Shown here: positions 28,563-44,115 of the stretch, piece by piece
Position numbering within the stretch: position 1 is the first letter of the stretch
How the letters are laid out: every line of letters begins with the position of its first letter
Source: Candidatus Bathyarchaeota archaeon
GTDB lineage: Archaea; Thermoproteota; Bathyarchaeia; Bathyarchaeales; Bathycorpusculaceae
Assembly: GCA_026414485.1 (NCBI GenBank)
Contig: JAOAIX010000004.1
Location: 10,824-74,823, forward strand
Length of the DNA stretch: 64,000 bases
Direction of reading: 5' to 3'
Notes under the pieces: model-generated
Database searches by the model: none
Told to the model about the DNA's origin: nothing
What the model saw: only the letters and a program-made list of their open reading frames with translations
Position numbers and translations under genes: made by a program

Positions 28563-28949
28563 CTAAATCCAGCTAGTTTTAACCTCTTTTACCGATTTAA
28601 AATGTGGGTCATCTGATAGGCAAGTTGCCCCCAGGATCAGCGCAGTGGCCGCAATTATGCTGTCTGCCACAGATAGACGGTATTTGTGCCTAAGCTCCGC
28701 GCTACTTTTGGCGATTTCTACGTCAATTTTTATGACTTTGAAATCTTTTTCCAGTAACGAGGTTCTCAAAATTGCCGTTTCTCGCCCTTCGTACACCAAA
28801 GTTAGATAGTAAATCTCATGTAAAACAATGGTTGATATGAATCGCTCTTTAACTTTCCGAATGGCATCTTTCGTCTTCTTAAGAACTGCATTTTCACGGG
28901 AATAGTAATGCTCTATGAAGAATCTTGTATCATACACTGTTTTAGGCAT
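28563..28949 (-). CDS. vapC: PIN-domain ribonuclease toxin (VapC family)
   Basis: 128 residues. PIN fold with the first acidic residue in VYDTRFFIEHYY (D7), then the VLHEIYYLTLV Glu and the SVADSIIAATALILGATCLSDDPHF block with the remaining acids. VapC toxins cut tRNA or rRNA. It overlaps its partner by 8 bases, antitoxin first, which is the standard vapBC order. Confidence 0.88.
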   Translation of the reverse strand: MPKTVYDTRFFIEHYYSRENAVLKKTKDAIRKVKERFISTIVLHEIYYLTLVYEGRETAILRTSLLEKDFKVIKIDVEIAKSSAELRHKYRLSVADSIIAATALILGATCLSDDPHFKSVKEVKTSWI

Positions 28950-29172
28950 CTAAGTCCCTTATTTTCTCCAACAGTTTCTTCATTTCTTCAGGCGAAGCAT
29001 ATCTGCCACCTGACCCTGCTAAGTCGAGTGTTGACTGCTTAGGCTTCAAAAGTATGCCGTCGTTGGTGTCAAGAACTTGGAGACGAGTACCCTCTTCTAT
29101 GTTGTATTTTGTACGAAATCGAATAGGAATAGTGGTTTGCCCTTTTCGAGTAACGACAACTTCGTCTTCCAT
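28942..29172 (-). CDS. vapB: AbrB/SpoVT-domain antitoxin (VapB family)
   Basis: 76 residues. Swapped-hairpin AbrB domain: EDEVVVTRKGQTTIPIRFRTKYNIEEGTRLQVLDTNDGILLKPK, which binds DNA as a dimer. The C-terminal GGRYASPEEMKKLLEKIRDLDA would wrap the toxin. Likely represses its own promoter through the inverted repeat at 29184-29207. ATG at 29172. Confidence 0.9.
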   Translation of the reverse strand: MEDEVVVTRKGQTTIPIRFRTKYNIEEGTRLQVLDTNDGILLKPKQSTLDLAGSGGRYASPEEMKKLLEKIRDLDA

Positions 29173-29183
29173 TATAGCTCACG

Positions 29184-29656: not shown

Positions 29657-30598
29657 ATGGGTAAAGGTTCAGGCTATGGAAAAGTCATTCTTTTCGGTGA
29701 ACACTTCGTCGTTCATGGTGTGCCCGGTATCGTTTCAGCTACTGATGCAAAGACTGATGCCGAGGTCAGGAAGATCCCTCAGGGGATAACCATAAAAGAC
29801 GACCGCAAAGGTTCCAAGGGCTATGCAGAAGAAAAAAAACTTCAACAAATCGAATCTATAGAACGTATGCTCAAAATAATGGGTTTGCCACAAACTACCG
29901 CTATGAGCATTTGGCTTGGTGGTGACTTACCAGGTTTCAGTGGCTTGGGTGCTTCTGCGGCGAGTAGCGTCGCCATTGCCCGAGCTATAGCTGAAGAATT
30001 TACCCTGCATTTTTCTGATGAGCAAATTAACCAGATAGCTTACGAGGCTGAAAAAGCGTATGCAGGCAACCCTTCAGGTATCGACAACACGGCTGCCACT
30101 TTTGGAGGGTTACTTTGGTTCCAAAAAAATATGCGTGGTGGATCTGATATATTCGAAAAAATTCTCATAAAAAAACCTGTAGAGATAATTATAGCTAGCA
30201 CAGGAATTGTAGCTAACACAAAAGCCATGGTAGAGGGCGTGGCTCAAAGAAAGAAAGCAAACCCAGAAAAATACAACCCCTTATTTAAACAGGCCGAAGA
30301 GCTAGCATTTGCAGGTAAAAAAGCGCTTCTGAATTTTGACCTCAAAAAAGTAGGAGAGCTAATGAACGAGAACCATCGTTTGCTGCAGGAAATAGAGGTT
30401 TCGTGTAAGGAGCTCGACTACCTCGTTGATGTAGCCAGACGAGAAGGCGCTCTAGGTGCGAAACTCACGGGAGGTGGTGGTGGTGGTTGCATGACTGCAC
30501 TTACACCTGGTATGGATCTGCAAGAAAAAGTGGCGTCAACCATAGAAAAAGAAGGTTTCCAAGTACTTCGCACCAAAATTGGTGTCCAAAAACTATAA
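29657..30598 (+). CDS. mvk: Mevalonate kinase
   Basis: 313-residue GHMP kinase. GKVILFGEHFVVHGVPGI is the mevalonate-binding N-terminus, PGFSGLGASAASSVAIARA the ATP-binding motif II with the catalytic environment, and KLTGGGGGGCM motif III. It makes mevalonate 5-phosphate, entry to the module that follows. AAGGTG stands 8 bases before ATG. First gene of an operon running to gltX or beyond. Confidence 0.96.
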   Translation: MGKGSGYGKVILFGEHFVVHGVPGIVSATDAKTDAEVRKIPQGITIKDDRKGSKGYAEEKKLQQIESIERMLKIMGLPQTTAMSIWLGGDLPGFSGLGASAASSVAIARAIAEEFTLHFSDEQINQIAYEAEKAYAGNPSGIDNTAATFGGLLWFQKNMRGGSDIFEKILIKKPVEIIIASTGIVANTKAMVEGVAQRKKANPEKYNPLFKQAEELAFAGKKALLNFDLKKVGELMNENHRLLQEIEVSCKELDYLVDVARREGALGAKLTGGGGGGCMTALTPGMDLQEKVASTIEKEGFQVLRTKIGVQKL

Positions 30599-30636
30599 AG
30601 AGATTTATCGCTAAACTGAAGGGTACGGCGAGGAAT

Positions 30637-31944
30637 TTGGGGTTCAGGAACTTTATAGAGCAATTAGATAAAGCTGGAGACCTTACTCATATAACTAAGC
30701 CTGTTTCAACCGAATATGAGTTAGCTAGTGTCATAGAGGCATTAGGTGAGAAACCTGTTATTTTTGAGAATGTCAAGGAATCATGTATACCAGTAGTTGC
30801 AGGTTTAGTTTCTTCTAAAGATCTCATTGCTAGATCTTTAGGCATTAACAAAGAGCAGTTGTTATCTAAACTTTCCAACGCAATAGATCATCCTATACCT
30901 CCCCAACTTGTTGATGTAGGTGAATGCCAAGAAGTGATTGAGACAAATGTTGACCTAACCAAGTTCCCCATTATGCGCTACACTGAAAAAGACGGAGGAA
31001 AATACATACCTTCTGCTATATCCATCGTTAAAGATCCCAAACTGGGCAGAAACATGTGTTTCCACCGTCTTATGCTCTTAGACAAAAACCATTTTGCTGT
31101 ACGTATTGTCGAAGATAGAGGAACTGATACTGCCCTAAAGAACGCAGGGGGCGAACTTGACATAGCCATCTGTATAGGCAATTCAACTGCAGTGCTTCTT
31201 GCTGCCGCCACATCTTTACCCAAAGGCATGGATGAATTAGGTATGGCAAATGCTCTGGAACAAACGAATTTAGTTAAGTGCAAAACGGTTGATTTGGAAG
31301 TACCGAGCAACTGTGAAATCGTACTTGAGGGCAGAATAACAAAAGATAAAACTTCTGAAGGCCCCTTCTTAGATTTAACAGGCACCCTAGACAAGGTTAG
31401 ACAACAACCCATAATAGAAATCAAATGCGTGACCCACAGGCAAAACCCCATTTACCAAACTATACTCGCAGGTAGAAATGAGCATAAATTCTTGATGGGT
31501 ATGCCGAAAGAACCCACAATTTTCAACGAGGTTAACAAAGTTTGTGAGTGTAAAGACGTTTACATAACACTTGGCGGATGTAGTTGGCTTCATGCAATTG
31601 TACAGATAAAAAAGAAAAATGCTGACGACGCCAAAAAAGCCATAACCGCCGCCTTCGAAGGCCACAAATCTTTGAAGCATTGTGTAGTTGTAGACGAAGA
31701 TATTAACATTTACGACCCCCACGATGTAGAGTGGGCAATTGCGACCCGCTTCCAAGCAGATAAAAACCTCGTTATCCTTTCAAATCAGCCTGGCTCTTCA
31801 CTTGATCCATCTGGAGACCTCTCAGAGGGTAAAAAAGCGACTACTGCTAAAGCGGGGTTAGATGCGACTATTCCATTTTCTGCAACAGGTAAGGGCTTCA
31901 AAAAAGAAGAATATCGAAAGGTGGATTTAAGCCAGTTTATTTAG
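30637..31944 (+). CDS. UbiD-family decarboxylase, probable anhydromevalonate phosphate decarboxylase
   Basis: About 435 residues. UbiD-fold protein with LDVGECQEVIETNVDLTKFPIMRY-type motifs, SIVKDPKLGRNMCFHRLMLLDKNHFAVRI, the conserved Glu in DFxEGPFLDLTG-like SEGPFLDLTG, and HAIVQIKKKNADDAKKA. Placement between mevalonate kinase and the two AcnX subunits identifies it with the enzyme that decarboxylates trans-anhydromevalonate 5-phosphate to isopentenyl phosphate (established in Aeropyrum). It would need prenylated FMN; no ubiX-like gene is seen here. The start is uncertain: the family N-terminus GFRNFIEQLDKAGDL favours TTG at 30637, though its Shine-Dalgarno spacing is poor. Confidence 0.88.
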   Translation: MGFRNFIEQLDKAGDLTHITKPVSTEYELASVIEALGEKPVIFENVKESCIPVVAGLVSSKDLIARSLGINKEQLLSKLSNAIDHPIPPQLVDVGECQEVIETNVDLTKFPIMRYTEKDGGKYIPSAISIVKDPKLGRNMCFHRLMLLDKNHFAVRIVEDRGTDTALKNAGGELDIAICIGNSTAVLLAAATSLPKGMDELGMANALEQTNLVKCKTVDLEVPSNCEIVLEGRITKDKTSEGPFLDLTGTLDKVRQQPIIEIKCVTHRQNPIYQTILAGRNEHKFLMGMPKEPTIFNEVNKVCECKDVYITLGGCSWLHAIVQIKKKNADDAKKAITAAFEGHKSLKHCVVVDEDINIYDPHDVEWAIATRFQADKNLVILSNQPGSSLDPSGDLSEGKKATTAKAGLDATIPFSATGKGFKKEEYRKVDLSQFI

Positions 31945-31965
31945 TAATTATTCACGTGATCTATT

Positions 31966-33165
31966 ATGTATTTGACAAAAGAAGAGCAGCGGATGCTTGA
32001 CGGCGAAGAAGGGTACGCTGCACGCAAGAGTATGGAAATCCTTGTTGCACTAGGAGAAATATATGGTGCTGAGCGTCTAATAAAAATTGGTTCAGTACAA
32101 GTTGCAGGTGTCTCTTACCATAACCTAGGCGATGCAGGATTAGAGTTTCTCAACGAACTTGCCAAAGACGGTAAAGTGCGGGTTTTAACCACCTTGAATC
32201 CTGCAGGTATGGATTTGGAAAATTGGAAGACTCTGGGAATAAAAGAGGATTTTGCCGCAAAGCAAAATCTTGTAATAGACGCCTTCCAGCGTATGGGCAT
32301 ACTCATCAGTTGCACCTGCACCCCTTATCTTATAGGTAACTTGCCCCGATACGGGGAACATGTTGCTTGGTCTGAGTCGTCAGCAGTAACTTTTGCAAAC
32401 TCCATTATTGGCGCTAGAACCAACAGGGAAGGGGGTCCATCTGCTTTAGCTGCAGCTTTTGTTGGAAAAACACCGTGTTATGGTCTACATTTAGACGAGA
32501 ACCGTGTGCCTGATGTACATGTGCAGGTAAACGTAGCTCTTACTAAGATTTCTGATTGGGGCGCACTAGGTTATGCTGTTGGAAAGAAAGTGGAAAATAA
32601 AATTCCCTACATCACAGGCATCAAAGAAGCAGAGCTGGACGAATTGAAATCTTTCTGCGCCTCGGTGGTGACCTACGGTACTAAACCACTTTTTTACATA
32701 CGGGGAATCACGCCTGCCGCAGAGAATGTTCAAATTCCAAAAGATACAGTAACCATAGAGCAAATCGATATACAAAATGCGTATGATAGCATAAACGACC
32801 AGGTTACTGACATAGATTTCGTTTGTGTTGGCTGTCCCCACTGTAGTATAAAAGAAATCTCTGAAATAGCTGAACTTATCAAAGGCAAAAAAATCAAGGA
32901 AAACACCGAGTTGTGGGTTGCCACCTCAAGAACTGCCAAGCAGTTGGCGGACAAACGCGGTTATACCCAGATTATCGAGGAGGCGGGGGGAAAATTTGCA
33001 TGCGACACATGTATGGCAGTTGCACCCCTAAAAGGTCGGTTTAAAGCCTTGGCTACAACGTCTGCAAAAGGTTGTTTCTATTCGCGGCAAAACAATATGA
33101 AAACTAAAATAGGTAGCCTCAAAGAGTGCATAGATGCTGCGGTGACTGGAAAATGGAGCAATTAA
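31966..33165 (+). CDS. Phosphomevalonate dehydratase large subunit (AcnX type)
   Basis: 399 residues, the AcnX (aconitase X, DUF521) large subunit. It keeps an Fe-S cluster site: CTCTPYL near residue 120, CVGCPHCS and CDTCMAVAP are the cysteine segments. SESSAVTFANSIIGARTNREGGPSAL is a strong family signature. With the small subunit it dehydrates mevalonate 5-phosphate to trans-anhydromevalonate 5-phosphate. A hypoproline dehydratase role is known for other AcnX proteins, but the mevalonate context decides here. Confidence 0.93.
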   Translation: MYLTKEEQRMLDGEEGYAARKSMEILVALGEIYGAERLIKIGSVQVAGVSYHNLGDAGLEFLNELAKDGKVRVLTTLNPAGMDLENWKTLGIKEDFAAKQNLVIDAFQRMGILISCTCTPYLIGNLPRYGEHVAWSESSAVTFANSIIGARTNREGGPSALAAAFVGKTPCYGLHLDENRVPDVHVQVNVALTKISDWGALGYAVGKKVENKIPYITGIKEAELDELKSFCASVVTYGTKPLFYIRGITPAAENVQIPKDTVTIEQIDIQNAYDSINDQVTDIDFVCVGCPHCSIKEISEIAELIKGKKIKENTELWVATSRTAKQLADKRGYTQIIEEAGGKFACDTCMAVAPLKGRFKALATTSAKGCFYSRQNNMKTKIGSLKECIDAAVTGKWSN

Positions 33166-33539
33166 CTGGTAGAGTTATATACAAGGGCAAAGGTGAAGGT
33201 GAAGCAATAGTCACCACCCAACCCATATCATTTTACGGTGGTGTAGATCCAAATACTGGTGAAGTTATAGAAAAAGGTCACGAACTGCAAGGAAAAAGCG
33301 TCAAGAATAAAATTCTGGTTTTTCCACAAGGCAAAGGATCCACGGTAGGTAGCTACACCCTTTATCGGCTTAAAAAGAATGGTGTGGCACCAACAGGTAT
33401 TATTAATAGTGAATGTGAGACTATCATCGCAGTCGGCGCAATAATCAGCGAGATCCCATGTGTTGATAAGGTAGACATCACCAAAATCAAGACAGGTAAC
33501 CATGTCTTGATAGAAAACGGTGTGGTTACGGTACTTTAA
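33153..33539 (+). CDS. Phosphomevalonate dehydratase small subunit (AcnX swivel domain)
   Basis: 128 residues from ATG at 33153, overlapping the large-subunit gene by 13 bases. The sequence has the swivel-domain features GEGEAIVTTQPISFYGGVDPNTGEVIEKGHELQGKSVKNKILVFPQGKGSTVGSYTLYRL, including the GKGSTVGSY substrate loop. Forms the two-chain dehydratase with the gene before it. Overlap suggests coupled translation. Confidence 0.93.
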   Translation: MEQLTGRVIYKGKGEGEAIVTTQPISFYGGVDPNTGEVIEKGHELQGKSVKNKILVFPQGKGSTVGSYTLYRLKKNGVAPTGIINSECETIIAVGAIISEIPCVDKVDITKIKTGNHVLIENGVVTVL

Positions 33540-33581
33540 TATTACTCTACAAATTCATCATAAACAAGAAAGGTGCAAAAG

Positions 33582-34382
33582 ATGAGCGAAGTGCGACCCA
33601 TAATCTTAAAACTCGGCGGTTCCGCCATCACCGATAAAACCCAAGAATTAGTTGCCAAAACCGAAGTTATCAACCGTTTAGCTGATGAAATTAAGCGTGC
33701 AGATTTAGATAATCTAATTATTGTTCATGGTGGAGGAAGTTTTGGTCACCCCACGGCGCAACGATACGGCATCAAAGAGGGTTATAAAGAACCAACTCAG
33801 AAACTTGGGTTTGCCGAGACTCACCACGTTATGACCATGTTGAATGGTTTAGTTATGGATTCGCTTATACTGCACGAAGTTCCCGCGCTTAGCATTGCCC
33901 CGTCATGTTGTGTAGTGACCGATAACGGCAAGATCAAAATTTTCGAAGAAAACCTGATAAAGCGTATATTAAAAATGGGTTTCACACCTGTTCTCTATGG
34001 GGATGTAGTCTTCGACGAAAAACTTGGTTTCACAGTGCTTTCTGGTGACCAATTAGTAACTTACTTGGCCATTAAACTCAAAGCTGAAAAAATTGTAATA
34101 GGCGTGGATACCGACGGTTTGTTTGATGAGGATCCCAAAGCTAACCCCAACGCAAAACCCTACAGGCATCTTACACTTGAAGAATTAAAGAAAATTCAAA
34201 ATAAGCTAGGTAAATCCTCAGGAACGGATGTGACAGGGGGAATGGCAGGCAAAATTGCTGAACTTATTCCAGCCGTAGAGCACGGTATTCACGTTACTAT
34301 AACAGGTGCAACCAAACCCCTGTCAATTAACAGGGCACTTATAGGTAAAGATGTATTGGGTACTGAAATAGAGAAGGCGTAA
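33582..34382 (+). CDS. ipk: Isopentenyl phosphate kinase
   Basis: 266-residue amino-acid-kinase-fold enzyme that phosphorylates isopentenyl phosphate to IPP. VRPIILKLGGSAITDK is the ATP loop, and VHGGGSFGHP carries the catalytic His (H56) specific to IPK. Further VLYGDVVFD, LSGDQLVTYLA and the GTDVTGGMAGKIAEL motifs are present. ATG at 33582 after AAAGGTG; a GTG nine bases earlier is less likely. Next step after the UbiD-type decarboxylase in the same operon. Confidence 0.95.
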   Translation: MSEVRPIILKLGGSAITDKTQELVAKTEVINRLADEIKRADLDNLIIVHGGGSFGHPTAQRYGIKEGYKEPTQKLGFAETHHVMTMLNGLVMDSLILHEVPALSIAPSCCVVTDNGKIKIFEENLIKRILKMGFTPVLYGDVVFDEKLGFTVLSGDQLVTYLAIKLKAEKIVIGVDTDGLFDEDPKANPNAKPYRHLTLEELKKIQNKLGKSSGTDVTGGMAGKIAELIPAVEHGIHVTITGATKPLSINRALIGKDVLGTEIEKA

Positions 34383-34384
34383 AA

Positions 34385-35485
34385 GTGGCAGAAGAAACCC
34401 AAAGACGAAAAGCGGACCATATTAGAATTTGCTTAAACGAGAAGGCGCAAGCCAAGAAAACAACTTCTGGCTTTGAAGACGTGCATTTTGTGCATAAAGC
34501 TCTTCCAGAGGTTGACAAGAACAAAATTGACCTTTCAACTTACTTTTTAGGTCACAAATTCAATGCCCCACTCATGGTTGGTGCAATGACAGGAGGAACC
34601 CCTCAAGCAGAGAAAATTAATGCCAACATCGCCCAAGCTGTAGAAAAACTGGGATTAGGCATGGGTGTAGGTAGCCAACGTGCTGCGGTAGAGAACGTTC
34701 AGCTTACAAAAACTTTTGCGGTTGCCAGAAAAAAAGCGCCTACAGCCTTTATAGTGGCCAATTTGGGCGGTGTGCAACTGGTTCACGGTTATGGTTTAAA
34801 CGAAATAAAAAAATCCATAGAAATGGTTGACGCCGATGCGGTTGCCATCCACCTAAATGCTTTACAGGAGGCAGTTCAGCCTGAGGGGCAAACAAATTTT
34901 GAAGGCGTCCTTGAAAAAATTAGCGAGATTGCAGATAAACTAGACAAGCCAGTGATTGTAAAGGAAACAGGTTCAGGCATCGCAGCAGAGGAGACAAAAC
35001 AACTGGAAGCTGCAGGCGTGAAAGCCCTTGATGTAGGAGGCGCAGGAGGAACAAGCTTTGCTGCAGTGGAGTATTATCGTACAATAAAAAGTGAAACCGA
35101 CACCCAATCATTGGGTGAAACCTTTTGGGACTGGGGCATTCCAACAGTGGTCAGTATAGTGGAAATTGCTCAAACCTCCAAGATTCCGGTTATCGGTTCA
35201 GGAGGTATCCGCAATGGAACAGACATGGCAAAAGCCATAGCTCTAGGCTCAACGTTGACGAGTGTAACCCAGCCAATTCTTCAAGCCGCAGTAGAAAGTA
35301 CCGAGGCGACTCAAAGACTACTTTCCGTTTTGATGGAAGAATTGAAGACCACGATGTTTCTTGTGGGGTCAAAAAGTGTTCAACAATTAGCCAAGGCACC
35401 AGTAGTGGTTATGGGTAACACTTCTAAATGGCTAGAACTTAGAGGTTTCAACATCAAAGAATACGCAAATAGAGGAGCAAGATAA
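34385..35485 (+). CDS. fni: Isopentenyl-diphosphate isomerase, type 2 (FMN-dependent)
   Basis: 366 residues. TIM-barrel flavoenzyme interconverting IPP and DMAPP: RKADHIRICLNEKAQ, FNAPLMVGAMTGGTPQAEKINANIAQ, GVGSQRAAVEN, HLNALQEAVQPEGQTNF with the Gln/Glu metal site, VIVKETGSGIAAEE, DVGGAGGTSFAAVE and IGSGGIRNGTDMAKAIALG for FMN phosphate. GTG at 34385, two bases after the IPK stop. Confidence 0.96.
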   Translation: MAEETQRRKADHIRICLNEKAQAKKTTSGFEDVHFVHKALPEVDKNKIDLSTYFLGHKFNAPLMVGAMTGGTPQAEKINANIAQAVEKLGLGMGVGSQRAAVENVQLTKTFAVARKKAPTAFIVANLGGVQLVHGYGLNEIKKSIEMVDADAVAIHLNALQEAVQPEGQTNFEGVLEKISEIADKLDKPVIVKETGSGIAAEETKQLEAAGVKALDVGGAGGTSFAAVEYYRTIKSETDTQSLGETFWDWGIPTVVSIVEIAQTSKIPVIGSGGIRNGTDMAKAIALGSTLTSVTQPILQAAVESTEATQRLLSVLMEELKTTMFLVGSKSVQQLAKAPVVVMGNTSKWLELRGFNIKEYANRGAR

Positions 35486-35487
35486 TT

Positions 35488-36558
35488 GTGGATATTGAAA
35501 CTTTTCTTGAAGAAAAAGCACCCCTAATTGACAAGGCAATAGAGAAGTATATCCCAAGAAAATTCACAAAAGACGCTTTGCTGTTCAAGGTCAATCCCCC
35601 AAAATATGGCTACAACCTAGAGACCTTAAACAAGGCAATAGCTGAGCCAATATGGGACATGCTTGACCGAGGAGGCAAACGTTGGCGTCCTGTGCTTTTT
35701 ATGCTAATCTGTGAAGCTTTAGGTAAGAAAGCAGAAGATTTTCTGGATTTCGCAATAATCCCAGAAGTTATACACAATGGCACTTTAGTGATCGATGATC
35801 TCGAGGACTCATCTGAAATCCGCAGAGGTAAACCATGTACTTACAAAATTTTCGGTATAGACATTGCCGTTAACGCCGGCAACACCATGTATTACCTTCC
35901 CCTTCTACCATTTATGGAGCAGAGAGACAAACTTTCAACCAACAAATTGCGGGAGCTCTACGAAATTTATGTACAAGAGATGATTAACCTCAGTATGGGG
36001 CAAGCCATGGACATCGCATGGCACCGCGGGTTAGCCAATGCAGATGATATAAACGAAGAAGATTACTTGCAAATGTGCGCTTATAAAACAGGTACGTTAG
36101 CACGTATGGCAGCTAAACTTGCCGCAGTGCTGGCTGACGCAGACAAAGAACTTGTAGAAAAACTAGGTTGCTTCACAGAAAGCGTAGGCGTTGCGTTCCA
36201 AATGCAAGATGACGTTTTGGATTTGACGGGAAAAGAATTTGCCAAAAATAAAGGTGGCATAGGGCAAGATATAACCGAGGGCAAGAGGTCACTTATGATT
36301 ATATATGCATTAAAAAAAGCCACTCAAAAAGACAGAACCCGTCTTTTGAAAATTTTAAACATGCATACTTCAGATCAAAAGTTACGCGACGAAGCTATAG
36401 CTATACTACAAAAGTACGGTGCTATGGAGTATGTAAAGAATAAGGCTGCAAAAATCGTGGAGGACAACTGGCGAGAGGTTGCCAAGCTTCTGCCAGCGAC
36501 GGAGGGCAAGGAAAAATTAAAAGCCTTCGCAGAATTCTTGATTAAACGAAATATTTAA
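35488..36558 (+). CDS. idsA: Polyprenyl (probably geranylgeranyl) diphosphate synthase
   Basis: 356 residues, somewhat longer than typical trans-prenyl synthases. The first Asp-rich motif is DDLED at 103-107 followed by SSEIRRGKP; the second is DDVLD at 241-245. GGKRWRPVLFMLICEALG is the IPP-binding part. It would make the C20 (or longer) chain for ether lipids. The residues just before the first motif (HNGTLVI) set the chain length, but I cannot read the length with confidence. GTG at 35488, two bases after the fni stop. Confidence 0.93.
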   Translation: MDIETFLEEKAPLIDKAIEKYIPRKFTKDALLFKVNPPKYGYNLETLNKAIAEPIWDMLDRGGKRWRPVLFMLICEALGKKAEDFLDFAIIPEVIHNGTLVIDDLEDSSEIRRGKPCTYKIFGIDIAVNAGNTMYYLPLLPFMEQRDKLSTNKLRELYEIYVQEMINLSMGQAMDIAWHRGLANADDINEEDYLQMCAYKTGTLARMAAKLAAVLADADKELVEKLGCFTESVGVAFQMQDDVLDLTGKEFAKNKGGIGQDITEGKRSLMIIYALKKATQKDRTRLLKILNMHTSDQKLRDEAIAILQKYGAMEYVKNKAAKIVEDNWREVAKLLPATEGKEKLKAFAEFLIKRNI

Positions 36559-36578: not shown

Positions 36579-38327
36579 ATGCTTAAAGATAATGATGAAC
36601 TTCGAAGTCTTATTCGAAAAAATGCGCTTATCAACGCTGTTCAGCATGACGGTAAAGCCCAAGCAGGGCCCATTGTAGGCAAAATTTTAGGTGAAAAAGC
36701 TGAATTTCGCACTCAAGTTAAGGAGTTATCAATCCTTATTAACGAAGTACTCTCAGAAGTTAACAGTCTTCCTTTTGGAGTTCAAAAGCAAATTGTAGAA
36801 GAAAACTGGCCTGAAGTCTTCAGAAAAGAGAAAGCTGAAGAAAAACAACTGCCTGCCTTGCCAAACGTCGACAAATACAAACAGGTCGTGACAAGGTTTT
36901 CTCCAAACCCTGACTGCGTATTACATTTGGGTTCCGCCCGCGCAATTCTGTTAAGCCACGAATATGCCCAACTATATAAAGGAAAATTTATACTTAGATT
37001 CGAAGATACTGATCCAAAAGTGAAGAGACCCTCTTTAACGTTTTATGAGAGAATCCGTGAAGATCTAAAATGGTTAGGTTGCAAAGTTGATGAAGAATAC
37101 ATCCAAAGCGACCGCTTACCCATTTACTACGACTATGCTGAACGTCTTTTAACATCAGGTAATGCATACGCCTGCACTTGTATACCTGAAACCTTCAGAA
37201 AGAAAACTATCCATGGTGTACCGTGCCCCTGTCGTAACTTGACACCATCCGAGCATCTGGAGCGTTGGCAACGTATGCTTGACGGTACTTACCAAGAGGG
37301 TACTGCAGTGGTACGCATCAAAACTGATTTATCTCATCCAAACCCCGCAGTACGGGACTGGCCTGCCCTCAGGATTATAGACACAGAAAAGTATCCACAC
37401 CCTCGGGTGGGAAGCAAATACTTGGTTTGGCCCTTGTATAATTTGGCTGCAGGTCTAGATGATCACTTGTTGGGCATAACCCATATTATCCGTGGGAAGG
37501 AGCACTTAACTAACGGTGTTCGCCAAGAATTCATGTATCGGCACTTGGGCTGGGAATACCCACAAGCAATTCATTATGGAAGGCTCAAAATTACAGGAGC
37601 GTTTCTGAGCAAATCTAAAATCATTCAAGGCATAAAAGAAAAACACTTCACAGGTTTTGACGATCCAAGGCTGGCAACTTTTGCAGCGTTAAGAAAGCGT
37701 GGTATAACCCCTCAAGCAATCAAAAAGATGATAATTGATGTTGGACCCAAAACCGCTGACGTAACGTTGAGTTGGGAGAATCTGTATGCTTACAATCGAA
37801 AAATCCTTGATCCACAATGTTCACGATACTTTTTCGTTGCTGACCCTGTACAGTTGAAAGTTAAAGCCGTGCCAAAAACGTTCAAAGTAAACTTGCCAAT
37901 GCACCCCCAACAGGTCGAAAAAGGCACAAGACATCACACAATAACGCCTGAAGGTGAAGAACAAGTAACGGTTTTATGGATTACTAAAAAAGACATGGCT
38001 ACTATGAAGGTAAACAAAGTAGTCAGACTCATGGAACTCTTTAACGTCAAAATCGAAAATACAGATACGAAGGGGGCAGAGGCAGTTTTTATGAGTGACT
38101 CTTATGAGGATGCGCGGAGGGCTAAAGCTCACTTAATTCACTGGATACCTGTTGGTGCAGAATTTCCATGTGAAGTAGTTATGCCTGATTCTTCTCTGAT
38201 TCAAGGCTTTACAGAGAACGCATGCAAAACGTTAAAGGCTGACGATACTATACAGTTTGAACGCTTTGGCTTTGTAAGGGTCGAGTCAGTATCAGAAAAC
38301 TTGCGTGTGTATTTCGGACACAAATAA
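36579..38327 (+). CDS. gltX: Glutamyl-tRNA synthetase, archaeal type
   Basis: 582 residues. An archaeal N-terminal domain of about 100 residues precedes the class I core. The HIGH-like motif is PNPDCVLHLGSAR (HLGS at 116-119) and the KMSKS-like motif FLSKSK lies near 345. RFEDTDPKVKRP is the Glu-binding stretch. The C-terminal beta-barrels (from about 400) are of the GlnRS/archaeal GluRS kind. In lineages without GlnRS it would be non-discriminating. It ends the run started by mvk. Confidence 0.95.
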   Translation: MLKDNDELRSLIRKNALINAVQHDGKAQAGPIVGKILGEKAEFRTQVKELSILINEVLSEVNSLPFGVQKQIVEENWPEVFRKEKAEEKQLPALPNVDKYKQVVTRFSPNPDCVLHLGSARAILLSHEYAQLYKGKFILRFEDTDPKVKRPSLTFYERIREDLKWLGCKVDEEYIQSDRLPIYYDYAERLLTSGNAYACTCIPETFRKKTIHGVPCPCRNLTPSEHLERWQRMLDGTYQEGTAVVRIKTDLSHPNPAVRDWPALRIIDTEKYPHPRVGSKYLVWPLYNLAAGLDDHLLGITHIIRGKEHLTNGVRQEFMYRHLGWEYPQAIHYGRLKITGAFLSKSKIIQGIKEKHFTGFDDPRLATFAALRKRGITPQAIKKMIIDVGPKTADVTLSWENLYAYNRKILDPQCSRYFFVADPVQLKVKAVPKTFKVNLPMHPQQVEKGTRHHTITPEGEEQVTVLWITKKDMATMKVNKVVRLMELFNVKIENTDTKGAEAVFMSDSYEDARRAKAHLIHWIPVGAEFPCEVVMPDSSLIQGFTENACKTLKADDTIQFERFGFVRVESVSENLRVYFGHK

Positions 38328-39149: not shown

Positions 39150-39893
39150 CTATGATGAGGGTTCGCCATTGTCGCCAAGGTTTTGTTGATCTTCTTTTAA
39201 GGCTTCACCGAAGATACGTTTTAAATCTCTTTTTAGCGAGGAGGGATCTTGGGTTAAGCCGAAGTAGTCTGCGAAGTAATCAGTAGTTTTGAGGACCAAT
39301 GAGCGCCCCATACGTTCTGTAGCGATTAGTCCCATCTCTTTTAATAGTTTTATATGTGCGTAAGCATGCTGTCCTCGCACTTCAATCACCCGTTTCTGGG
39401 AAAGTGGTTGTCTATATGCTATGTAACTTAGGGTTCGTAATGGACCTGACGAGAGTAGAGGACGGTTTACAAGTTTTTTTACCAGTGGAGTGAACTCAAC
39501 TTTGAGTTGCATAACGTAACGTTCGTCTTTTAATGCCAAAATTTCAAGAGGGGTACGCCTCGCTGAGTATTCCTGCATTAACATTTGAACGTATTGTTGA
39601 ACTCTTTTTTTTGATCGTGTGTTTAAAACAGAACAGATTTCGTTTAGATTCAAGGGTCGACCTGCAACGTAGAGTGCAGCTTCTAGAAGGTTGAGAATCT
39701 GTTGTTTTTTTTCTTGATCCTGTACTTGTTCTTGTGTTGATTCTTGTGTCTGTTGTTCTTGAGTTTGTAGCCGACTTTGAATGGGTGCTTGTATTTTTGC
39801 TTGCTGCTGCTCTTCGAGTGTTGATTGCTGAGCTGGTTGTTCCGAATCAGATTTCAAGTTTGTCTGAGTAGGCTGGGCGTCACTATTTTGCAA
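39150..39893 (-). CDS. scpB: Segregation and condensation protein B
   Basis: 247 residues. The first ~60 are Gln/Glu-rich low complexity. From about 62 (QQILNLLEAALYVAGRPLNLNEICSVLN) the two winged helices of ScpB follow, with RPLLSSGPLRTLSYIAYRQPLSQKRVIEVRG-type core and GLIATERMGRSLVLKTTDYFADYFGL. It is the kite subunit of the SMC complex. It overlaps the end of scpA by 11 bases. The low-complexity start could mean a later true start, but no better one with a Shine-Dalgarno is obvious. Confidence 0.92.
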   Translation of the reverse strand: MQNSDAQPTQTNLKSDSEQPAQQSTLEEQQQAKIQAPIQSRLQTQEQQTQESTQEQVQDQEKKQQILNLLEAALYVAGRPLNLNEICSVLNTRSKKRVQQYVQMLMQEYSARRTPLEILALKDERYVMQLKVEFTPLVKKLVNRPLLSSGPLRTLSYIAYRQPLSQKRVIEVRGQHAYAHIKLLKEMGLIATERMGRSLVLKTTDYFADYFGLTQDPSSLKRDLKRIFGEALKEDQQNLGDNGEPSS

Positions 39894-40563
39894 CTTTCAG
39901 GTTCCCCACTGCTATGTATATTTCTTCTGTTTCCTCATTCTGCCATAAACTCACCAAGCCATCTTGAGCCAAGAAGAGCAGAAGAATGAATGTGCGGACA
40001 GCTTCAATTCTTGTGATGCCTTTAATCAAAGTTGAAAACTCTATTATACCTGTACCTTTGACCATTCCTACGAGGCGTTCATAGAGCTTGTCCATTTGAA
40101 GCTCCAGTTCAGCGATAAACTTGTCGAACTGAGGCATGAGATCAGAGGCTTCGGGAAGAACAGGATGACTTACGACCCTGTCCATGTGCACCAGTTTTTC
40201 GCCTTTCAGAACTTCATCTAAAACTTCCAGTAGATGTTGTATGGTGGTTGATGTCAACTCGTATCGCAGGGGCAGAAAGAGAGGAGGCGGTATGAAGTCT
40301 TTGGATTCTTTGGGTTGTGCAGGCGGCTCTTGGAGGGTAAGTAGCAGTTTTGACTTCATCAAATAAATGAGTGCTGAGGAATCTAAAGCTACGCCTGAAG
40401 CGCGAAAGTCGACTTTGCCTAGTTTTTCCATCTCCAAAAGAAACGATCTAAGCAAATAGGCTATGTTGACGTTCCACGGGGTGAGTTTTTCAAGCTTGCT
40501 GACTTCAAACAGTATGTTCCATGGGGGTCGTAAGTAGAAAGGTTTTTTGTGAATCGTTTCCAT
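39883..40563 (-). CDS. scpA: Segregation and condensation protein A (kleisin)
   Basis: 226 residues. The kleisin N-terminal part WNILFEVSKLEKLTPWNVNIAYLLRSFLLEME binds the SMC neck and the C-terminal winged helix (TLIKGITRIEAVRTFILLLFLAQDGLVSLWQNEETEEIYIAV) caps the SMC head. ATG directly follows the smc stop (TAA then ATG). Together with smc and scpB it forms one operon encoding the whole condensin complex. Confidence 0.92.
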   Translation of the reverse strand: METIHKKPFYLRPPWNILFEVSKLEKLTPWNVNIAYLLRSFLLEMEKLGKVDFRASGVALDSSALIYLMKSKLLLTLQEPPAQPKESKDFIPPPLFLPLRYELTSTTIQHLLEVLDEVLKGEKLVHMDRVVSHPVLPEASDLMPQFDKFIAELELQMDKLYERLVGMVKGTGIIEFSTLIKGITRIEAVRTFILLLFLAQDGLVSLWQNEETEEIYIAVGNLKVAK

Positions 40564-43500
40564 TTATCGAACTGCCTCCATAAATTTTGCTGAAATAACG
40601 GCGGAGACACCATTCCGTTCGTAGACACCATAAACTTTCTGTGCTTTGTTGACCATTTCAGGTTTTAAAGTTATGACTATAAATTGAATTTTGTCGCACT
40701 CCTCTAAGAAGAGTTCGGCAAGTTTAGTTGTGTGGAAGGCGTCCAAGTGGGCGTCAACTTCGTCCATTACATAAAATGCTGCAGGAGTAAATTCTTTTAA
40801 GGCAAAAATGAATGCGACTGCAGAGACCGACCGTTCACCTCCGCTGGCACCGCTTACTACGATAGAAGGCTTATTGGGGAATTGCACAATCATGTCAATG
40901 CCGCCCATGAATGGTTCGTCTGGGTTTTCAAGTTTCAACGAGGCTGTGCCGCCACCAGTTAGCTTCGAGAAGTACTTGGTCAGGTCTGTGTTGATTTTTC
41001 CGAATGCATCCATGAAAACTTTCCGTTTTTTGCCTTCAATTTCGTCCATAAATTGAACTATAGCCTGTTTTTCTCTCTCTAACTCGTTTAAACGTAACGA
41101 AAGTTCACGGTATCTAGAAATTTGCTCGTCATAATGAGCCATTGCAAGTTGATTAACTCCGCCTATGCGCTCTAGTTCAAACTTCATCATCTGCATAATG
41201 GCTTCGGCTTCTTCCACTTGCTTTAGAGTGGTCTCTAGAGGTTGTTCATAATTCAAAGCCTTCAACTGGTTTTGATACTGTGAAAGCTGTAGCCGCGCTG
41301 TTTGAACGTTTAATTGTAACTGATTAAGTAGCGATTCCGCCTGTTCATATTCTTCGTCTAGTGCATGTAGCTCCGCGTCTATGCTGTCGATTTGTGAAGT
41401 AAATTTCTTTGAATTCTCTCGCGCTGAGAGAACCGCGTTTGAGAGTTCTACGCGGTTTTTCTCTAGTAAAGCAATTTCTTGTTTTAGTATTTCCCGTTCT
41501 TGGAGAGCTTCTGCGACTTCTTTTTCGACTTTACGATATTGCTGTTCAACTTTAGAAAGTTGAATTTTGCTGTTTTGGTAACCCGTACGTAAAACATTGT
41601 CAAACTGAGATTGACAAGTGGATATCGCCGTTTGGACTGTGCCTATTTTTTGTCTAAGTGTGATTATTTCTTCAGTTAATTGTTCCCTTTTAATCTCTAG
41701 CTCTTGAATATGAGCAATGTCTGTTTTCTTCCTCAATTCAGACATATCAATTTGAAGCTTTTGGAGCTCTTTTTTGATGGTGTTTCGCTCAGCCTTATGC
41801 AGTGCCATACGTCCCTTTTCCACTTCAATTTCCTTTTCAATGCGGGCGCGGAATTTCTCAATGCGTTTCAAGCTCATTTGGGTACGTTTGACGCTGCGTT
41901 TCACGCGGATCATTTCGCGGTCAAGTGCGCCTATTGCTTCTGAAATGCGGGTGATTTCAATCTTGGAGCGTTCAATTTCTTCTTCAAAATATGATATGTC
42001 ATTTCTACGCTGGTTGAGGTGTGTCTGAAGGGCTTTCACTGCTTCATCTAGACTTTTTATAGCGTTTTCGCTGGGAATAAGGGTGGAGAAGTCAAGTGGG
42101 GCACGGTAGTAGCCGCTTTCGAAGGCGCCGCCGGGCTCATATAAGTCGCCTGCGACTGTCACTGCACGGTAACCTTCGTTTGAAAGGGCAAATGCGACTT
42201 TGTCGTTGGCAACGACGAGGGTGTCGCCGAAAATATAGTTTACGGCTGGTTCATAGGTTTTATCACATTTCACAAATGAGGCTGCTAAACCTATAATTCC
42301 CTCGCGAGTGGGTGTTTTGAACTGTTTAGGCGTTGCTGCACCTTGAAGGGGTATAATTTTGATTCTGCCTAGCTTCATTCTGCGCAAAGTCTCGGCGCAA
42401 GTGAAGGCCGCATCTATATCCTTCACGACTAATGCGTCCATCCAACCCACCGATGCAGCGTCTAGCGCTTTTTTATAGTTTCGGTCAATTTTTATGAGGT
42501 TTTTTACTCGCCCTGCAACACCGTTGATGACACCCAAATGTCCGAGTTCTTCGATGTTTCGAAGAGCTTTTTCTTCGGCTGCAACGGTTTCAGCTAGTTC
42601 TCGTTGAGTGACAAATTCAACAACCGCTTCTTTGGCGCTGCTAGCAATTTTTCCCGCTTCAGCTATTTCTTTTTCTGCAGCATCTTTTTGAGCGGTTTTT
42701 TTCTCTATGGTTTTTTCGAGTATTTTCAGCTGTGCCTTTTGCTCTTTCTGAACACGGTCTAGTTCAGCAAGGGAATTTTCAACTTCAGTAAGTGTCGCTG
42801 TAAAGCGTTCTTTTCGGGCGCTCAGTTCTTTAAGTCTACCTAAACTTGCTTTGACAAAGGTTTTTGATTTAGTATATTCAGCACGTAAAAGAGTGAGCCT
42901 TTTGTTGTAAGTTTCAATTTCCGCTTCAATTTGCCGTATTTTAGCGCTGTTTTCTCCTAGATTGTCCCATAATTGTGTAGTTTCTTGTGCGAGACTGTCA
43001 TGTTCTGTTTGTTTAGAGGCAATCTGACCTTCTAAGACCGAAAATTCGTTTCTCAGTTTACGTATGTTTAAGCGGTTTTGTCGTATTTCATTACGCAGTG
43101 TTTCGTATTGTTGTTGATTGTTTTCCTTTATACGCTTTAGACTTTCAAGGTTAGATTGCCCAGAACTGATTTTGGTTGTAAGTTCTGTTAGTTTAGATTT
43201 AAGTTCTCCAATCTGAATCTGTACCTTCATTACTTGGGAACTGCCGTCTTCCATAACTTCAGAGCTTAATTTCCGCCATTCTCCTTCAATTTCACGCCGT
43301 TTATTTCTTCGTGCGTCACGGATCTCCTTTAGTTTTTCTACTTTTGCTTTCGCTTTTTCTGTTTGCGTAGTCATTTCTTCAAGTTTTTTAGTTAGCTGTG
43401 TTATTTCGTGACTAACTCTGATTGCTTCAAACTTTTTAATTTCAGTTTGTATGAAGTTGGCGCGTTGAAGTTGGTTGCGTTCTCTTTCTAAGTCATCCAG

Positions 43501-44115
43501 TCGTTTTTGAACTTCGTCAATTCTGCCCATTGCAGTACGAATGGAGATGTCAGCGGCACGCAGTTTTTCTTCTGCGTCTGCTTTTTCTGCGTCGTACTGT
43601 GCAATGCCTACAAGATTTTCAATTATTTTTCTGCGTTCTAAGGGGATAATATCGGTGAGGCGCGTGATTGTGCCCTGTGCAATTATGTTCTGGCTTTCGG
43701 CGCTGATAGCACCCATTGACAAAACTTCTAGAAGTTGCTGGCGACTAACGCGGCGTCCGTTAAGCCGATAAATACTCTGGCCATTACGGTAGACTTCTCG
43801 AGAAACTGTGACTGTGGTGGTGTCAACCGCCATAGTGCCATCTGTGTTGTCAAATTGAATTATCACCTTGGCCATTTTCGATTTTTCTAGTCCTGCTTTT
43901 TCGGAGCCATGAAAAATCAGTTTAGCTGCGTTTTCTGCACGGAGCCTTCTTGTGCTAAGTTCACCCAGCGCAAATAAGATCGCGTCCATGATGTTGCTCT
44001 TGCCACTTCCGTTGGGGCCTGTAATTGCGGTGAAGCCCTTATCGAGATTTATTTTAACGGTTTGAGGTCCGAAAGATTTGAAACCTTTAATCTCGATTCT
44101 TTTGAGGTAGGGCAT
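40564..44115 (-). CDS. smc: Chromosome segregation ATPase SMC
   Basis: 1183 residues, full-length SMC. Walker A GPNGSGKS at 33-40, Q-loop region with NVVGIAQYD-like NLVGIAQYDAEK, two long coiled-coil arms, a hinge near 500-660 (GVINGVAGRVKNLIKIDRNYKKALDAASVGWMDALVV), the ABC signature SGASGGERS at about 1088-1096 and Walker B FYVMDEVDAHLD at about 1114-1125. It organises and segregates DNA together with ScpA and ScpB. Its presence separates this organism from Sulfolobales, which use a different SMC-like protein. Confidence 0.97.
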   Translation of the reverse strand: MPYLKRIEIKGFKSFGPQTVKINLDKGFTAITGPNGSGKSNIMDAILFALGELSTRRLRAENAAKLIFHGSEKAGLEKSKMAKVIIQFDNTDGTMAVDTTTVTVSREVYRNGQSIYRLNGRRVSRQQLLEVLSMGAISAESQNIIAQGTITRLTDIIPLERRKIIENLVGIAQYDAEKADAEEKLRAADISIRTAMGRIDEVQKRLDDLERERNQLQRANFIQTEIKKFEAIRVSHEITQLTKKLEEMTTQTEKAKAKVEKLKEIRDARRNKRREIEGEWRKLSSEVMEDGSSQVMKVQIQIGELKSKLTELTTKISSGQSNLESLKRIKENNQQQYETLRNEIRQNRLNIRKLRNEFSVLEGQIASKQTEHDSLAQETTQLWDNLGENSAKIRQIEAEIETYNKRLTLLRAEYTKSKTFVKASLGRLKELSARKERFTATLTEVENSLAELDRVQKEQKAQLKILEKTIEKKTAQKDAAEKEIAEAGKIASSAKEAVVEFVTQRELAETVAAEEKALRNIEELGHLGVINGVAGRVKNLIKIDRNYKKALDAASVGWMDALVVKDIDAAFTCAETLRRMKLGRIKIIPLQGAATPKQFKTPTREGIIGLAASFVKCDKTYEPAVNYIFGDTLVVANDKVAFALSNEGYRAVTVAGDLYEPGGAFESGYYRAPLDFSTLIPSENAIKSLDEAVKALQTHLNQRRNDISYFEEEIERSKIEITRISEAIGALDREMIRVKRSVKRTQMSLKRIEKFRARIEKEIEVEKGRMALHKAERNTIKKELQKLQIDMSELRKKTDIAHIQELEIKREQLTEEIITLRQKIGTVQTAISTCQSQFDNVLRTGYQNSKIQLSKVEQQYRKVEKEVAEALQEREILKQEIALLEKNRVELSNAVLSARENSKKFTSQIDSIDAELHALDEEYEQAESLLNQLQLNVQTARLQLSQYQNQLKALNYEQPLETTLKQVEEAEAIMQMMKFELERIGGVNQLAMAHYDEQISRYRELSLRLNELEREKQAIVQFMDEIEGKKRKVFMDAFGKINTDLTKYFSKLTGGGTASLKLENPDEPFMGGIDMIVQFPNKPSIVVSGASGGERSVSAVAFIFALKEFTPAAFYVMDEVDAHLDAFHTTKLAELFLEECDKIQFIVITLKPEMVNKAQKVYGVYERNGVSAVISAKFMEAVR

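What the first reader, a model, noticed from the sequence alone, without database searches (positions are those of the whole stretch)
29657..36558. Complete archaeal phosphomevalonate-dehydratase mevalonate module in one operon
Mevalonate kinase, UbiD-type decarboxylase, AcnX large and small, isopentenyl phosphate kinase, type 2 isomerase and prenyl synthase are contiguous in order of use. The pathway is known from Aeropyrum, but such full clustering is useful: it assigns function to the UbiD and AcnX genes by context and rules out the need for phosphomevalonate kinase. Steps before mevalonate and a prenyl-FMN synthase (ubiX) are not in the window.
Basis: partly seen in the sequence, partly recalled or inferred. 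Interest (0 to 1): 0.6.

Follow-up and report, generated by a model that had tools for sequence, protein, structure and literature searches.

The report
Archaeal isoprenoid operon without cofactor gene
This is the ordinary archaeal gene set for making the building blocks of membrane lipids, but the genome and almost its whole family lack the one enzyme known to make the unusual flavin cofactor that a key step should need.

Summary
Seven co-directional, tightly packed genes at 29657-36558 encode mevalonate kinase, a UbiD-family decarboxylase, both subunits of an aconitase-X enzyme, isopentenyl phosphate kinase, type 2 IPP isomerase and a short-chain prenyl synthase; glutamyl-tRNA synthetase follows 20 nt later. 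They are not quite "in order of use": UbiD precedes AcnX. Conserved residues fit phosphomevalonate dehydratase and a prenyl-FMN (prFMN) decarboxylase. The genome holds five GHMP kinases, four with other jobs, and no phosphomevalonate kinase or decarboxylase. HMG-CoA synthase and reductase are on other contigs. So this is the archaea-type mevalonate pathway, the commonest in archaea, and the same seven-gene order occurs in 28 further loci: a new member of a known kind.

The useful part is what is missing. No flavin prenyltransferase (UbiX) exists in the window's genome (92.5% complete). Among 56 AcnX-bearing genomes of the family, all at least 90% complete, UbiX occurs in one. UbiD keeps every prFMN-site residue checked, and in deeper branches of the class UbiX sits beside UbiD and AcnX. 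How this family obtains prFMN is open and testable. The only related flavoprotein in the genome (AfpA) lacks UbiX's catalytic residues.

The parts
29657..30598 (+). mevalonate kinase (GHMP kinase); ATP + mevalonate to mevalonate 5-phosphate
   Evidence: TIGR00549 238.7 bits, over cut-off; best solved relative 2hfs mevalonate kinase, 1.8e-61
30637..31944 (+). [quoted passage not shown] likely TTG start
   Evidence: TIGR00148 391.6 bits; best solved relative 6h6v, 7.5e-81; metal and prFMN residues N139, R144, R156, R161, E200, E241, D246 conserved in about 105 relatives
31966..33165 (+). phosphomevalonate dehydratase large subunit (aconitase X, type IIb)
   Evidence: PF04412 515 bits; 387 bits to T. 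kodakarensis 7CNR against 223 to type I cis-3-hydroxyproline dehydratase; cluster cysteines C118, C290, C349, no site-C cysteine
33153..33539 (+). phosphomevalonate dehydratase small subunit (AcnX swivel domain); overlaps the large subunit by 13 nt
   Evidence: PF01989 121 bits; 7CNR chain B 7.2e-40
33573..34382 (+). isopentenyl phosphate kinase
   Evidence: NF040647 252.6 bits, over cut-off; 3ll9 isopentenyl phosphate kinase 1.5e-52
34385..35485 (+). type 2 isopentenyl-diphosphate isomerase (FMN enzyme)
   Evidence: TIGR02151 418.1 bits, over cut-off
35488..36558 (+). short-chain prenyl diphosphate synthase (GGPP-synthase-like; product length not determined)
   Evidence: PF00348 221 bits; best solved relative 1wy0 GGPP synthase 7.5e-40
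36579..38327 (+). glutamate--tRNA ligase, last gene of the conserved gene string (20 nt after the prenyl synthase)
   Evidence: NF003169 750 bits; present after the seven genes in 28 of 28 full-length loci

Best explanation
A complete lower archaea-type (modified) mevalonate pathway in one operon of a Bathyarchaeia genome. Mevalonate is phosphorylated by MVK. The two-subunit aconitase-X enzyme dehydrates mevalonate 5-phosphate at a [4Fe-4S] cluster to trans-anhydromevalonate 5-phosphate. The UbiD protein decarboxylates that to isopentenyl phosphate using prFMN. IPK makes IPP, IDI2 makes DMAPP, and the prenyl synthase joins them for archaeal lipids. Shown here: the genes, their families, cofactor-site residues, the absence of alternative kinases and decarboxylases, and HMGS and HMGR elsewhere in the genome. 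Inferred: the substrates of AcnX and UbiD. The prFMN must come from a source other than a recognisable UbiX, because none exists in this genome or in nearly all of its family.
For: Family scores. AcnX is PMDh-like: 387 bits to 7CNR against 223 to type I, with the three cysteines that PMC10040528 shows to bind the cluster in A. pernix (C118, C290, C349) in every relative covering them, and no site-C cysteine. The genome has one UbiD and one AcnX, so no paralogue is left for another role. No PMK or DMD. HMGR and HMGS present. MVK-UbiD-AcnX-AcnX(S) in that order in 49 of 80 loci, reaching Thermoplasmatota, Hadesarchaea and Diapherotrites. UbiX absence: class sample 35 of 128 with UbiX against 114 of 128 with AcnX; own family 1 of 56 AcnX-bearing genomes; full-genome HMM search finds only AfpA.
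Against: No assay was done. Substrate specificity of AcnX and UbiD rests on homology and context. The genome is 92.5% complete, so single-genome absences are weak alone; the family-wide count answers this for UbiX but not for every enzyme. Cofactor-residue conservation does not prove that prFMN is used.
Confidence: 0.92

Rival explanations
1. UbiX is really there and only missed: in an assembly gap, or too diverged to be recognised.
For: The window genome is 92.5% complete and is a draft in 33 contigs.
Against: Absent in 55 of 56 AcnX-bearing family members, each at least 90% complete. Found at 1e-83 where present in the same family (G009). A lineage-trained profile finds G009 and G036 at 1e-94 but nothing UbiX-like in G012, G014, G018, G022, G027, G032, G038 (96-100% complete). 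HMM search of all 9,732 ORFs of the own genome with filters off finds only AfpA.
Confidence: 0.15
2. prFMN is made by an unrelated, unidentified flavin prenyltransferase, or prFMN (or a precursor) is taken up from neighbouring microbes.
For: UbiD retains all prFMN and metal residues in UbiX-less genomes. UbiX lies directly beside UbiD and AcnX in deeper branches of the class (L183, L187, L189), so the dependence is ancestral and only the gene is lost. CoaBC, of the same fold and also a cofactor enzyme, is missing too in the own genome.
Against: No candidate gene and no known prFMN importer; argument from absence.
Confidence: 0.65
3. The AfpA-like flavoprotein (C29:66458-67060 of the own genome) replaced UbiX.
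For: Only UbiX-fold protein in the genome; same superfamily (TIGR02699 235 bits, weak UbiX hit); a single PF02441 match of this size in each of the seven genomes of the genus.
Against: It lacks the residues invariant in UbiX: S11 is G, E45 is Y, S72 is A, R104 is N, R121 is V/S/T, Y151 absent. Not found in UbiX-less family members G012, G014, G018, G022 of 96-100% completeness. A UbiX-bearing genome (G036) has a similar protein too.
Confidence: 0.07
4. The AcnX pair and UbiD serve another pathway, such as hydroxyproline or aromatic acid metabolism, and isoprenoids are made by a eukaryote- or haloarchaea-type route.
For: AcnX and UbiD families include such enzymes, and Zhu et al. report phosphomevalonate decarboxylase in some Bathyarchaeia (PMC11052028).
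Against: No PMK, DMD or PMD in the genome; cis-3-hydroxyproline dehydratase model far under its cut-off (306 of 700 bits); conserved operon with MVK and IPK.
Confidence: 0.03

Closest known systems
Archaeal modified mevalonate pathway of Aeropyrum pernix and Methanosarcina mazei (PMDh, AMPD, IPK)
   Same: Same enzyme set; same AcnX type IIb two-subunit enzyme with the three cluster cysteines; single UbiD decarboxylase; IPK.
   Different: Here all lower-pathway genes plus IDI2 and a prenyl synthase form one operon, and no UbiX is present in the genome.
MVA gene clusters of other Bathyarchaeia and other archaea
   Same: Identical order MVK-UbiD-AcnX(L)-AcnX(S)-IPK-IDI2-prenyl synthase-gltX in 28 loci.
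   Different: Deeper-branching families of the class (G047, G048, G055) carry UbiX directly upstream of UbiD; the window family does not.
Thermococcus kodakarensis AcnX (PDB 7CNR/7CNS)
   Same: Closest solved relative of both subunits.
   Different: Protein of a hyperthermophile; sequence diverged.

Membership tests
Archaea-type mevalonate pathway | Both AcnX subunits of type IIb (phosphomevalonate dehydratase) | tested here: met
   PF04412 and PF01989; nearest to 7CNR; C118/C290/C349 conserved, no site C
Archaea-type mevalonate pathway | UbiD-family anhydromevalonate phosphate decarboxylase | tested here: met
   TIGR00148 over cut-off, linked to AcnX and MVK in 49 loci; substrate not assayed
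Archaea-type mevalonate pathway | Mevalonate kinase and isopentenyl phosphate kinase present | tested here: met
   TIGR00549 and NF040647 over cut-off
Archaea-type mevalonate pathway | No phosphomevalonate kinase or diphospho-/phosphomevalonate decarboxylase needed | tested here: met
   Five GHMP kinases, four otherwise assigned and the fifth this MVK; TIGR01240 finds nothing over cut-off
Archaea-type mevalonate pathway | HMG-CoA synthase and reductase upstream | tested here: met
   C27:27917 (a strong homologue, 316 bits, but under the curated cut-off of 353) and C31:27222
prFMN-dependent UbiD enzymes | Metal and prFMN-binding residues and Glu-Arg-Asp network | tested here: met
   N139, R144, R156, R161, E200, E241, D246
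prFMN-dependent UbiD enzymes | Partner flavin prenyltransferase UbiX in the same genome | tested here: not met
   No UbiX in own genome; 1 of 56 AcnX-bearing family members
UbiX (considered for the AfpA-like protein of the genome) | Invariant catalytic and DMAP-site residues of UbiX | tested here: not met
   Most replaced or absent in 11 AfpA proteins
Archaea-type mevalonate pathway | Enzyme activities on mevalonate 5-phosphate and anhydromevalonate phosphate | not testable with these tools
   needs assay

The most novel reading that the evidence does not exclude
A whole family of Bathyarchaeia runs an essential prFMN-dependent step of lipid synthesis without UbiX, so it must hold a second, unrelated flavin prenyltransferase or live on prFMN obtained from other organisms.
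Probability: 0.5. Interest if true: 0.72.

Novelty: new member of a known kind. Interest (0 to 1): 0.45.

Why it matters
The operon gives clean functional assignment of UbiD and AcnX in uncultured archaea but is not new biology. The missing UbiX is. prFMN is known to be made only by UbiX-family enzymes (my own knowledge), and here it should be needed for every membrane lipid. A lineage that lost UbiX while keeping an intact UbiD points to an undiscovered route to prFMN or an unsuspected dependence on neighbours. It may help explain why these archaea are so hard to cultivate.

Tried and rejected
AfpA as a UbiX substitute: catalytic residues missing and not universal among UbiX-less genomes. UbiX hidden as an extra gene in the operon gaps of relatives: the inserted ORFs in L030, L032, L033, L042, L044, L046, L052 and L071 look like a beta-lactamase-fold nuclease, PIN/AbrB pairs, a PadR-like regulator, a restriction-type protein and membrane proteins, read by eye from the translations; none has the UbiX signature. 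Loss of prFMN dependence in UbiD: no consistent residue change between UbiX-bearing and UbiX-less genomes. Detection failure: controls ring in M. jannaschii, S. acidocaldarius and M. acetivorans, and a lineage-trained profile agrees. Literature searches for UbiX absence in archaea or Bathyarchaeia found no report in the open-access papers held; subscription papers, including the original 2018 description, could not be read.

Full report
What is there. The window is part of a 1,530,174-base draft genome in 33 contigs, 92.5% complete. The named loci nearest to its AcnX are Candidatus Bathyarchaeota, up to 90% identical over the best segment. Seven genes run co-directionally from 29657 to 36558 with gaps of -13 to 38 nt, and gltX follows after 20 nt. 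Their families are beyond doubt. The UbiD frame in the ORF list begins inside MVK; homology starts at about residue 53 of that frame and the likely start is TTG 30637. The gene order is MVK, UbiD, AcnX large, AcnX small, IPK, IDI2, prenyl synthase, so 'in order of use' is loose: AcnX acts before UbiD.

Is the pathway assignment right? The AcnX large subunit scores 387 bits against T. kodakarensis 7CNR but 223 bits against type I cis-3-hydroxyproline dehydratase; the small subunit also matches 7CNR best. In A. pernix phosphomevalonate dehydratase three cysteines (122, 297, 356) bind the [4Fe-4S] cluster and the type I site-C cysteine is absent (PMC10040528). The corresponding C118 and C290 are invariant in 91 aligned sequences, C349 in the 83 that cover it, and site C is Ala, Val or Ile. 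UbiD keeps the metal ligands (N139, E200), the flavin-site arginines (R144, R156, R161) and the acidic pair (E241, D246), mapped through the E. coli UbiD alignment; the E. coli residue roles are from my own knowledge. The genome has a single UbiD and a single AcnX. All five GHMP kinases of the genome are accounted for as homoserine kinase, archaeal shikimate kinase, beta-RFAP synthase, pantoate kinase and this MVK; a diphosphomevalonate decarboxylase profile finds only these, weakly. HMGR and a HMG-CoA synthase homologue exist on other contigs (the latter scores 316 bits, under the family's curated cut-off of 353).

Is the clustering new? No. Of 80 AcnX loci fetched from named genomes, 28 carry all seven genes plus gltX in the same order, 20 of them without large gaps, and 49 carry MVK-UbiD-AcnX-AcnX(S), including Thermoplasmatota, Hadesarchaea and Diapherotrites. 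A 2024 survey calls the archaea-type pathway the dominant one in archaea and notes that its genes usually cluster (PMC11052028). The module is a new member of a known kind. It is not universal in the class either: in some genera UbiD and AcnX lie far apart, for example G012.

What is missing. UbiD enzymes need prenylated FMN, made by UbiX (PMC6541611, abstract). Profile searches find no UbiX in the own genome. I then took the whole genome in stretches, rebuilt all 33 contigs (exact total length) and searched its 9,732 ORFs, filters off, with profiles made from Bathyarchaeia UbiX proteins, from CoaBC and from AfpA. One UbiX-fold protein exists, an AfpA (C29:66458-67060, minus strand); nothing else is above noise. 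Assembly gaps cannot explain this. In 128 Bathyarchaeia genomes of at least 90% completeness, AcnX occurs in 114 and UbiX in 35. In the window's own family, 56 of 58 genomes have AcnX and one (G009) has UbiX. Outside the window's order but in the class, 19 of 26 AcnX-bearing genomes have UbiX (my count). In 200 genomes of other classes of the phylum, 156 have it (my count from handles G140-G339). UbiX, where present in this class, scores 1e-68 or better in complete genomes, and a lineage-trained profile confirms the absence in seven further genomes of 96-100% completeness while finding both positive controls at 1e-94.

The dependence looks ancestral. In deeper branches (L183 of G055, L187 of G047, L189 of G048) UbiX sits directly upstream of UbiD, with AcnX next. 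In the window's family that place is taken by MVK. UbiD residues do not differ consistently between UbiX-bearing and UbiX-less genomes, which argues against loss of the cofactor requirement.

Candidates. AfpA is of the UbiX/CoaC fold (TIGR02699; solved relative 3wis). In 11 AfpA proteins the UbiX-invariant Ser11, Glu45, Ser72, Arg104, Arg121 and Tyr151 are replaced or absent, and UbiX-less genomes G012, G014, G018 and G022, 96-100% complete, have no AfpA. It is a poor candidate. Operon insertions in relatives hold no UbiX-like gene. An unrelated enzyme or uptake from neighbours remain. A parallel hint: CoaBC, also of this fold, is missing from the own genome and was not seen in any of seven genomes of the genus, although pantoate kinase and the next-gene PPAT-like protein are present.

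Verdict. The operon is known biology; the family-wide lack of the prFMN synthase is a real, testable gap that I could not find described in the open-access papers searched. What is shown is absence of recognisable UbiX and integrity of UbiD; that prFMN is used and comes from an unknown source is inference.

Noticed in passing
own genome, all 33 contigs (outside the window); L005: No CoaBC (neither the decarboxylase nor the ligase domain) in the own genome, and no CoaBC-sized PF02441 match in any of seven genomes of the genus, although pantoate kinase and an adjacent PPAT-like gene are present: an unexplained gap in coenzyme A synthesis.
   Followed up: partly
genomes G041-G046 (family f10 of the same class): Six Bathyarchaeia genomes (92-95% complete) have neither AcnX nor UbiX; possibly the lineage that uses a haloarchaea-type phosphomevalonate decarboxylase as reported in PMC11052028.
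   Followed up: no
29657-30598: The mevalonate kinase is closer to the structure 2hfs (212 bits; putative mevalonate kinase, from a kinetoplastid as I recall) than to the mevalonate kinases 6mde and 4hac (about 130 bits; archaeal as I recall), and it scores below the cut-off of the model NF003036.
   Followed up: no
28563-29180, minus strand: PIN-domain protein with an apparent AbrB-like gene just upstream: a VapBC-type pair next to the operon; the antitoxin was read by eye only.
   Followed up: no
L042:11571-14691, L071:11604-15082, L030:6248-8660: Relatives carry insertions inside the operon, between AcnX(S) and IPK or between MVK and UbiD: a glycosyltransferase-like membrane protein, a restriction-type gene, a beta-lactamase-fold nuclease (read by eye).
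   Followed up: partly
39150-44115, minus strand: Three adjacent genes that look like ScpB, ScpA and SMC by size and sequence; not scanned against a library.
   Followed up: no
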